Below are positions 4,786-6,842 of a stretch of 64,000 nucleotides of DNA, one piece after another; position 1 is the first letter of the stretch; each line of letters opens with the position of its first letter. The position numbers were made by a program, and so were the translations under genes. The notes below the pieces were generated by a model that was not told the DNA's origin, made no database searches, and was given only the letters and a program-made list of their open reading frames with translations. Origin of the DNA: Neisseria leonii (GTDB lineage: Bacteria > Pseudomonadota > Gammaproteobacteria > Burkholderiales > Neisseriaceae); NCBI RefSeq assembly GCF_028776105.2, contig NZ_CP145606.1, positions 434,001 to 498,000 on the forward strand, read 5' to 3'.

Positions 4786-5664
4786 ATGGACGGACGTGAT
4801 GCACTGATTGCCGGATTGGTGGTAACGGCGTGGGGCGTGAATTTTGCGGTGATGAAGGCCGGTTTGGCCGAGTTGTCGCCTGCGGTTTTGGGTTTGCTGC
4901 GTTTTTCGCTGCTGCTGCCTGCGGTGTGTCTGCTGCCGAGGCCGGCCGTGCGTTGGTACTGGCTGGCACTGTACGGCTTGTGCATCAGTTTCGGCCAGTT
5001 CGGCATGATGTTTACCGCACTGTCGTGGGGTATGCCGTCGGGTCTGGCTGCGCTGCTGTTGCAGTCGCAGGTATTTTTTACCGTGATACTGGCGGTCGTG
5101 TGGCTGCGCGAACCGGTGGCCGGGCACCACCTGCCCGCCATGCTTCTGGCCGCTGCGGGTCTGCTGCTGGCGGGGATCGGCCAATACCGGGGGGTAGTGC
5201 CGCTGGCGGCACTGTGGGCGGTGCTGGCGGCGGCAATGTCTTGGGCCTTGGGTAATCTGACGGTGAAGTTTATCGGGCGGGTGAATCCGCTGTCTTTGGT
5301 GGCGTGGGGCAATATTTCGTCATGGGCGGCGTTTTTGCTGTTGTCGCTGTGGTTGTACGGGGCGGGCGAAGTCGGGCGGCAGATCGCGGATTTGAGTGCG
5401 GGCGGCTGGTTGGCGGCGGCGTTTTTGGCGTATGTGTCGGGGTTGTTCGGTTACGGCGGTTGGGGGCGCTTGTTGGCGCGTTATCCGGCTTCGCTGGTAA
5501 CGCCTCTGGCTCTGTTGGTGCCGGTTATCGCGCTGTTGGTATCCGCACTGGTGCTGGGCGAGCGTTTGAACGGCTGGCAGTGGGGCGGTGTGGCGGTGGT
5601 GATGGCCGCACTGCTGGTACAGGTGTCCGGCGGCCGTTTGCGTGTGCGCGGGAGGGAGAAATGA
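4786..5664 (+). CDS. EamA/DMT-superfamily permease
   Basis: An inner-membrane transporter of the drug/metabolite superfamily with two EamA repeats and about ten hydrophobic segments in 292 residues. The opening TAWGVNFAVMKAGLAELSP and the mid-protein GNLTVKFIGR are typical of the YedA/EamA group. The substrate cannot be told from sequence; relatives export amino acids or metabolites. The start is ATG 4786, preceded by CGGAGG; an upstream in-frame extension to 4681 has no RBS and crosses a DUS. Its stop overlaps the next ATG (ATGA), so it is translationally coupled to the MFS gene. Confidence 0.9.
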   Translation: MDGRDALIAGLVVTAWGVNFAVMKAGLAELSPAVLGLLRFSLLLPAVCLLPRPAVRWYWLALYGLCISFGQFGMMFTALSWGMPSGLAALLLQSQVFFTVILAVVWLREPVAGHHLPAMLLAAAGLLLAGIGQYRGVVPLAALWAVLAAAMSWALGNLTVKFIGRVNPLSLVAWGNISSWAAFLLLSLWLYGAGEVGRQIADLSAGGWLAAAFLAYVSGLFGYGGWGRLLARYPASLVTPLALLVPVIALLVSALVLGERLNGWQWGGVAVVMAALLVQVSGGRLRVRGREK

Positions 5665-6842
5665 CGGCGGGCAATACGCCTGTGCGGGCGGCGGATTGGG
5701 GGGTGCGGCTGGCGGTAATGCTGACCGGCCTGTTTGCGTTTTTGCAGGTGTATTCGGTGCAGGCCGTGCTGCCGTTTCTGATGCGCGATTTGGCGGCAGG
5801 TGAGGTGGAGGCCGGGTTGGCGGTGGGGGCGACGGTGGCGGGTGTAGATCTCGTTTCTCCCATTATCATTAAAAAAAAAAATGCGTTCGGGCGCAAACGC
5901 TTTATTGTCGGCAGCCTGCTGTTTCTGGCTGTGCCCACCGCGCTGCTGGGCTGGTCGGATTCGATGCGCGAAATGATGATGTGGCGGCTGTTGCAGGGCG
6001 TGGCGGTGCCGGGGATTACGGTGGTGCTGATTGCCTATGTGGGCGAAGAGTTTGAAGGGGCGCTGATGACGCGCCTGATGGGGCTGTATGTGGCGGGTAC
6101 GGTGTTGGGCGGTTTCCTCGGCCGCTTTCTGCTCGGCCATTTGAACGACTGGCTGGGCTGGCGGCAGGGGTTTTGGATAATGGCGGCTTTCAGCGCATTG
6201 GGTGCACTGTTCGTCCGGCAGCGGCTGCCCGAATCGCGCCGTTTTGAGGCCAAACCCGATTTTCAGACGGCCTTGTCCACGCTTTACGGCCATTTGCACA
6301 ACCCTTATGTGCTGACGGCCTGCCTGCTCGGTGCCTGTGTGCTGTATTCGCTGGTGGGCTGTTTTACCTATATCAACCTGCATCTGGCCGATACGCCGTA
6401 CCGTTTGGGCAGCTCGGATTTGGCCAATCTGTTTGCAGTTTATTTAATCGGCATGGTGATTACCCCTTTATCGTCGCGCCTGATCGGCCGCTGGGGCAGT
6501 GCGAAAACCGTCATGGGGGCGGTGCTGCTGTCGGCATTGGGGGTAGTCGGTACGCTGGCCGCGCCTTTGTGGCTGATTGTGCTGTCGCTGGCCGCCATGT
6601 CCAGCGGTGTATTTATCGCGCAGGCGGCTACCATCAGCTATATTGCCGCCTACGTTTCCCAAGGGCGGTCGCTGGCTTCGGGTCTGTATTATGCGGCATA
6701 TTACGGCGGCGGTACGTTGGGGGCGTGGCTGTGCGGGCTGGCATATGCCTACGGCCGGTGGCAGACGGTGGTGCTGATGCTGCTGGCGGTTCAGGCAGCG
6801 GCATTGGCGGTGGCGGCAAAAGGTATGCGCAAGGCCGTCTGA
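5661..6842 (+). CDS. MFS transporter (sequence locally corrupted at 5842-5881)
   Basis: A major facilitator of about 393 residues with twelve predicted membrane segments, similar to CmlA/Bcr-type or arabinose-efflux permeases; substrate unknown. The ATG overlaps the EamA stop codon. The conserved loop between TM2 and TM3, normally G-x-x-[SAD]-D-x-x-G-R-[KR], reads IIIKKKNAFGRKRF: the residues before AFGRKR are replaced by Ile-Lys-Lys-Lys-Asn, encoded by an 11-A run. Residues 61-74 look foreign to the family although the frame is intact. The DNA matches Illumina adapter sequence there (see findings). The stop codon is supplied by a DUS (GCC GTC TGA), giving the C terminus KAV. Confidence 0.88.
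   Translation: MTAGNTPVRAADWGVRLAVMLTGLFAFLQVYSVQAVLPFLMRDLAAGEVEAGLAVGATVAGVDLVSPIIIKKKNAFGRKRFIVGSLLFLAVPTALLGWSDSMREMMMWRLLQGVAVPGITVVLIAYVGEEFEGALMTRLMGLYVAGTVLGGFLGRFLLGHLNDWLGWRQGFWIMAAFSALGALFVRQRLPESRRFEAKPDFQTALSTLYGHLHNPYVLTACLLGACVLYSLVGCFTYINLHLADTPYRLGSSDLANLFAVYLIGMVITPLSSRLIGRWGSAKTVMGAVLLSALGVVGTLAAPLWLIVLSLAAMSSGVFIAQAATISYIAAYVSQGRSLASGLYYAAYYGGGTLGAWLCGLAYAYGRWQTVVLMLLAVQAAALAVAAKGMRKAV
5842..5881. other. Adapter-like stretch with A11 run inside the MFS gene
   Basis: GTGTAGATCTCG at 5842-5853, then ten bases, then TATCATT at 5864-5870, then eleven A's at 5871-5881. These blocks occur with identical spacing at the end of the reverse complement of the Illumina TruSeq universal (P5) adapter, and reads that run past the adapter end typically continue in A. 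The ten intervening bases encode family-like residues (V-S-P-I-I), so the consensus looks like a mosaic of genomic and adapter bases. Confidence 0.8.

What the first reader, a model, noticed from the sequence alone, without database searches (positions are those of the whole stretch)
5842..5881. Probable Illumina adapter sequence fixed into the MFS gene
Seen: GTGTAGATCTCG, a 10-nt gap, TATCATT, then eleven A's. Known: the reverse complement of the TruSeq universal (P5) adapter ends GTGTAGATCTCG, ten bases, TATCATT, and reads past the adapter end often call A. Both anchor blocks and their spacing match exactly, which is very unlikely by chance. The effect on the protein supports it: residues 61-74, the TM2-TM3 motif A of an MFS transporter, become Gly-Val-Asp-Leu then Ile-Lys-Lys-Lys-Asn, while flanking AFGRKRF and the intervening V-S-P-I-I remain family-like. 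Inference: read ends with untrimmed adapter overwrote the consensus (for example during polishing). The real gene is probably intact, and other sites in this assembly may be affected.
Basis: partly seen in the sequence, partly recalled or inferred. Interest (0 to 1): 0.85.

Follow-up and report, generated by a model that had tools for sequence, protein, structure and literature searches.

The report
Sequencing adapter overwrote a transporter gene
A short stretch of a bacterial transporter gene in this assembled genome is almost certainly a piece of Illumina sequencing adapter written over the real bases during assembly, so the gene only looks damaged and the finding is a data error, not biology.

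Summary
Window 5842-5880 matches the 29-nt Illumina P5 end plus ten A's at 33 of 39 bases, against a mean of 16.7 for 21 genus relatives; both flanks are normal. The closest protein found, from Neisseria leonii, is 97% identical and intact there; 8 of its 12 substitutions fall in these 14 residues. The block keeps length and frame, and 5 of the 6 bases that depart from adapter equal the relatives' base. That fits column-by-column polishing, not insertion. The genome (2,206,085 bp, one contig) is probably N. leonii 3986T, a Unicycler assembly of NextSeq and nanopore reads (PMC11316581); Unicycler ends with Bowtie2/Pilon polishing (PMC5481147). Corrections: the P5 end is shared by TruSeq and Nextera; the A-run is best read as the copy of a T10 oligo spacer (60 of 100 uncut public cases are A10-A12), and the eleventh A is native; no second site was found in this genome. 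No reads were available, so how the adapter entered remains inference.

The parts
5661..6842 (+). MFS transporter gene (393 aa), reading frame open across the block
   Evidence: PF07690 MFS_1, E 3e-35; 20 NCBIfam hits, all below their curated cut-offs; open frame to 6842
5782..5841 (+). Extremely G-rich flank just before the block (35 G of 60)
   Evidence: 0.022% of 60-mers in the window have as many G
5842..5853 (+). First 12 bases of the reverse complement of Illumina P5, exact
5854..5863 (+). Middle 10 bases, mostly gene-like: 4 of 10 match P5; of the 6 that do not, 5 equal 21 of 21 relatives and 1 (5862) equals neither
5864..5870 (+). Last 7 bases of reverse-complement P5, exact
5871..5880 (+). 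Ten A's, read here as the copy of a T10 spacer of the surface-bound P5 oligo
   Evidence: 0-1 of 21 relatives has A at each of 5872-5880 (5871 A is also in 21 of 21); best-fit footprint ends at 5880; A-runs of 10-12 follow P5 in 60 of 100 uncut public cases
5881..5881 (+). Eleventh A, native gene base
   Evidence: A in 21 of 21 relatives

Best explanation
Bases 5842-5880 are an assembly artefact. Short reads that ended in the Illumina P5 adapter (29 nt) plus ten A's were aligned over an otherwise normal MFS transporter gene, and a column-by-column consensus or polishing step replaced most gene bases with adapter bases without changing the length. Shown: the match, its approximate borders, the intact conspecific protein, the preserved length and the mixed adapter/gene calls. 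Inferred: that the step was short-read polishing (Pilon inside Unicycler; about 0.75), that poor short-read support near the G-rich flank let few adapter reads win, and that the strain's real gene is intact. The confidence given is for the artefact as such.
For: Adapter identity 33/39 inside the block against a relatives' mean of 16.7/39, with normal flanks (upstream 9/29 adapter, 23.1/29 relatives; downstream 6/33 A-run, 24.8/33 relatives). The best-fitting footprints start in 5838-5846 and end at 5880 or 5881, ln likelihood ratio about 52 (model settings are mine). N. leonii protein P0001 is 97% identical with the stretch intact; 8 of 12 substitutions lie in these 14 residues, Fisher p about 1e-10. 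All 22 ortholog rows over the site keep the family sequence. No gap against the 21 relatives with full columns. Methods passage of PMC11316581 and Unicycler's final Bowtie2/Pilon step (PMC5481147 passages) supply a polishing step.
Against: No reads could be inspected. Base 5862 matches neither adapter nor any of 21 relatives. Only the outer P5 part is present, without the read-1 or index part expected between insert and P5 in an ordinary read-through. The DNA of another N. leonii strain was not available, only its protein. The identity with strain 3986T rests on genome size and one protein. None of the 124 public occurrences has a gene-like middle, so this form is unusual.
Confidence: 0.97

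Rival explanations
1. A real mutated patch or phase-variable A-tract in the gene of this strain, resembling the adapter by coincidence.
For: The frame stays open, and homopolymer tracts can mediate phase variation in Neisseria (recalled). A real polymorphism cannot be excluded for base 5862.
Against: Adapter match E 1.6e-6 in the genome; none of 21 relatives has the A-run, and the close N. leonii protein is intact; the change sits inside a stretch kept in all 22 ortholog rows.
Confidence: 0.02
2. An artefact too, but adapter joined to the gene in a de novo short-read contig (an assembled chimera or insertion) rather than polishing. This confidence is a share of the artefact reading.
For: 118 of 124 public occurrences lie near an end of the stretch fetched, as assembled adapter would.
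Against: The sequence returns to the gene at 5881 with no length change, and the middle bases are gene-like; a read holding A10 followed by gene sequence is not expected (inference).
Confidence: 0.12
3. Entry route, compatible with the best explanation: a P5 primer or surface oligo primed directly on genomic DNA, giving molecules with P5 flush against the gene that adapter trimming does not recognise; as opposed to soft-clipped ordinary adapter read-through.
For: The footprint can start at the first base of P5, with no read-1 adapter before it (upstream 9/29). Seven of 124 public occurrences also have P5 plus an A-run flush with non-adapter DNA: L063 (where one T interrupts the run), L101, L106, L124, L128, L134, L146.
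Against: The start is only fixed to about 5838-5846. Native P5 likeness is modest: relatives share a mean of 10.6 of 29 bases with P5 at the site, and in the median relative 9% of positions in its locus are as similar or more. Molecules without a read-1 site should rarely pass filters (recalled).
Confidence: 0.4

Closest known systems
Illumina adapter contamination of microbial assemblies (Moeller et al. 2024, PMC11536531; abstract and passages seen)
   Same: Adapter bases of sequencing origin in published bacterial genomes; isolates affected as well as MAGs
   Different: There contamination is concentrated at contig ends and counted by exact matches; here it is interior, length-preserving, partial, and in a single-contig genome
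Public contigs with P5 plus an A-run, and genome G110 with a Nextera-type end, index, P5 and a long A-run
   Same: Same P5 29-mer followed by A's, most often 10-12
   Different: Their middle ten bases are true adapter in 120 of 124 and differ at 1-2 bases in the other 4; none has the gene-like middle seen here
MFS transporter PF07690 orthologs in the genus
   Same: Same gene, 62-72% identity over the best-matching stretch in 22 of the 45 other genus genomes
   Different: None of the 22 rows over the site shows the adapter-like block

Membership tests
Illumina adapter contamination | Sequence match to an Illumina adapter beyond chance | tested here: met
   33 of 39 bases to P5 plus A10; E 1.6e-6 genome-wide with the A's, only E 1.63 without them
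Illumina adapter contamination | Absent from independent close relatives at the same place | tested here: met
   P0001 intact; 22 of 22 ortholog rows without it
Illumina adapter contamination | A-run of about ten after P5 | tested here: met
   Ten A's and then one native A here; 60 of 100 uncut public cases have 10-12
Illumina adapter contamination | Location at contig ends (typical, not essential) | tested here: not met
   Interior of a 2.2-Mb single contig
Illumina adapter contamination | Contiguous full adapter (typical, not essential) | tested here: not met
   Only the P5 part, and six of its middle bases are not adapter
Illumina adapter contamination | Raw reads carrying the adapter at this site | not testable with these tools
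   No reads held
MFS transporter (PF07690) | Curated Pfam profile score | tested here: met
   122.2 bits against a cut-off of 33.4
MFS transporter (PF07690) | Conserved loop motif between helices 2 and 3 (motif A, name and place recalled) | tested here: not met
   Disrupted in the deposited sequence, present in the 22 ortholog rows and P0001; attributed to the artefact, so it does not speak against the gene's membership

The most novel reading that the evidence does not exclude
Hybrid-assembly polishing can leave length-preserving, partly adapter and partly gene footprints inside complete reference genomes. These score too low for contiguous-match adapter screens, and so form a hidden class of false amino-acid changes in type-strain genomes.
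Probability: 0.3. Interest if true: 0.45.

Novelty: not a real feature. Interest (0 to 1): 0.25.

Why it matters
The genome searched here is the one held for its species and is probably the type-strain assembly, so the false residues may have passed into protein databases. The case shows that adapter can hide inside a finished chromosome in a form that a simple adapter screen could miss: the best ungapped match scored +1/-5 is 12, or 17 with the A's, below the usual VecScreen internal cut-offs (scoring and cut-offs recalled). It gives a testable signature for screening: the P5 end blocks with ten free bases between them and A10 after them, in frame.

Tried and rejected
Chance match: rejected. 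Real A-tract or phase variation: rejected because relatives and the conspecific protein lack it. Insertion: rejected because length and frame are preserved. Site chosen because the gene resembled P5: weak; relatives share a mean of 10.6 of 29 bases (range 8-13) with P5 at the site, median tail fraction 0.09. Other adapter sites in this genome: TruSeq index adapter, Nextera read 1 and Nextera read 2 gave no match better than E 1.6; partial footprints could be missed, without the A-run, scores this very site only at E 1.63. Complete E. coli genomes: no match to P5 plus A10 in 20,395 records (megablast needs a 28-base exact word and would miss partial footprints). Phage records: 19 of 50,697 have a match.

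Papers: searches (9 of 9 papers listed; 12 of 60 listed; 10 of 195 listed) looked for adapter contamination and polishing error; from these listings I opened PMC11536531 (abstract and passages) and PMC5481147 (passages). I saw no listed title about interior partial adapter footprints; with most of the hits unlisted this is not a full search. One search found the P5 reverse complement printed in 102 papers (15 listed, none opened from that list). For the T10 spacer the only paper found with the exact string was PMC11123353 (one passage), which describes its own surface primers with an added 10-T; that Illumina's grafted P5 oligo has the same T10 is recalled. PMC7331155 and PMC11384075, from the listing (10 of 21 listed), were looked at in passages only for the P5 sequence and oligo layout. 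For PMC11316581 I saw the abstract, passages, and part 1 of 2 of section 11.

Rows dropped: L025 was left out of the base-by-base counts because its alignment did not cover the whole span. In the tail-only class (11 of 124), by my reading L091 and L132 are ordinary adapters misfiled by the script (short contig start, one base error) and L061 and L149 have no A-run, leaving seven.

Full report
Observation. The bases are exactly as described. The spaced pattern is found once in the window and GTGTAGATCTCG once in the 2,206,085-bp genome. The TruSeq reverse complement plus A11 hits the site at E 1.6e-6; the only other hit is a 14-nt match at E 1.6. The spaced pattern is in 1 of 83 family genomes, this one, and in 2 of 398 genomes drawn from the phylum: this one and G110. 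In G110 it is a Nextera-type end with index and a long A-run.

The gene. The block lies in a 393-aa MFS transporter (PF07690). NCBIfam gives 20 weak hits, many to efflux and symport families, all below their curated cut-offs, so the substrate is not assigned. In one search, 37 of 46 genus genomes (own included) have some match at E <= 0.001; 22 of the 45 others have a clear ortholog (62-72% identity over the best stretch).

Comparison with relatives. One search aligned 22 ortholog rows over the site; 21 cover every base. All 22 keep the family sequence that the window lacks. Over 5842-5880 the window matches adapter at 33 of 39 bases and relatives at a mean of 16.7 (range 14-19). Upstream, 5813-5841, it matches TruSeq adapter at 9 of 29 and relatives at a mean of 23.1. 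Downstream, 5881-5913, it matches a continued A-run at 6 of 33 and relatives at a mean of 24.8. In 21 columns where at least 19 relatives agree on a base that differs from adapter, the window has the adapter base in 15, the relatives' base in 5 and neither in 1. The 5 and the 1 all fall in 5854-5863. If the six were random miscalls, the chance that at least 5 hit the relatives' base is 0.018, so that the middle is surviving gene sequence is likely but not certain. The three adapter-like informative columns inside it (5855, 5858, 5861) are third codon positions and may be native too, so I cannot tell a contiguous native stretch from base-by-base mixing.

A conspecific. The nearest protein found is P0001, 'MFS transporter [Neisseria leonii]', 392 aa, longest contig 2,321,692 bp. 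It is 97% identical; outside the 14-residue block there are 4 substitutions and one 1-residue gap, inside the block 8 substitutions. The species paper (PMC11316581: abstract, passages, and part 1 of section 11) gives 2.21, 2.32 and 2.23 Mbp for strains 3986T, 51.81 and JF 2415, sequenced on NextSeq 500 and nanopore; 3986T and JF 2415 were assembled with Unicycler 0.4.8, 51.81 with Trycycler. Size points to 3986T for this genome and to 51.81 for P0001. This is inference, not a label in the data.

What the A-run is. In public contigs the same P5 end is followed by A-runs: 100 uncut cases peak at 10 (21 cases), 11 (20) and 12 (19). This fits a ten-T spacer on the surface-bound oligo. A paper on solid-phase amplification adds such a 10-T to P5-like primers (PMC11123353, one passage); that Illumina's own oligo has it is recalled. 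The fitted footprint ends at 5880 or 5881 and starts between 5838 and 5846. Base 5881 is A in 21 of 21 relatives.

How it got there. The return to gene sequence with no change in length, and the partly gene-like middle, point to base substitution on aligned reads. Unicycler's final step is Bowtie2 plus Pilon polishing with short reads (PMC5481147 passages). The 60 bases before the block hold 35 G, reached by 0.022% of 60-mers in the window. Poor short-read support there, letting a few adapter reads win, is a plausible but untested cause. How P5 came to lie flush with the gene, without the read-1 part, is unsolved. Seven of 124 public occurrences have P5 plus an A-run flush with non-adapter DNA. 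Of the six occurrences more than 250 bases from either end of the stretch fetched, L063, L101, L128 and L134 are of this flush kind with no N beside them, L124 adjoins a run of N, and L113 has ordinary TruSeq adapter before it. Whether those four are substitutions or insertions was not tested.

Verdict. An artefact of sequencing and assembly, very probable. The MFS gene should be treated as intact but mis-deposited until reads are checked. Intact copies exist in the conspecific and in relatives. I file it as 'not a real feature' because the bases are very probably not in the organism; as a kind of error it belongs to adapter contamination, which is known (PMC11536531), in an unusual interior and partial form.

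Noticed in passing
5862: One base in the block matches neither adapter nor any of 21 relatives; could be a miscall or a real polymorphism.
   Followed up: partly
L156 (G110:C1:1691894-1691922): Another genome of the phylum carries a Nextera-type end with index, P5 and a long A-run.
   Followed up: partly
L063, L101, L128, L134: Public contigs with P5 plus A-run flush with non-adapter DNA, more than 1 kb from either end of the stretch fetched.
   Followed up: partly
phage records H1-H19: 19 of 50,697 phage records contain P5 adapter bases, among them NC_048651.1 near its start, MK170160.1 between two tail fibre genes, and PQ462667.1 overlapping an annotated endonuclease.
   Followed up: partly
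5782-5841: Exceptionally G-rich stretch on the plus strand inside the transporter gene.
   Followed up: partly
L124: P5 plus six A's stands directly against a run of N and is followed by a repeat of the preceding sequence, like a scaffolding error.
   Followed up: no
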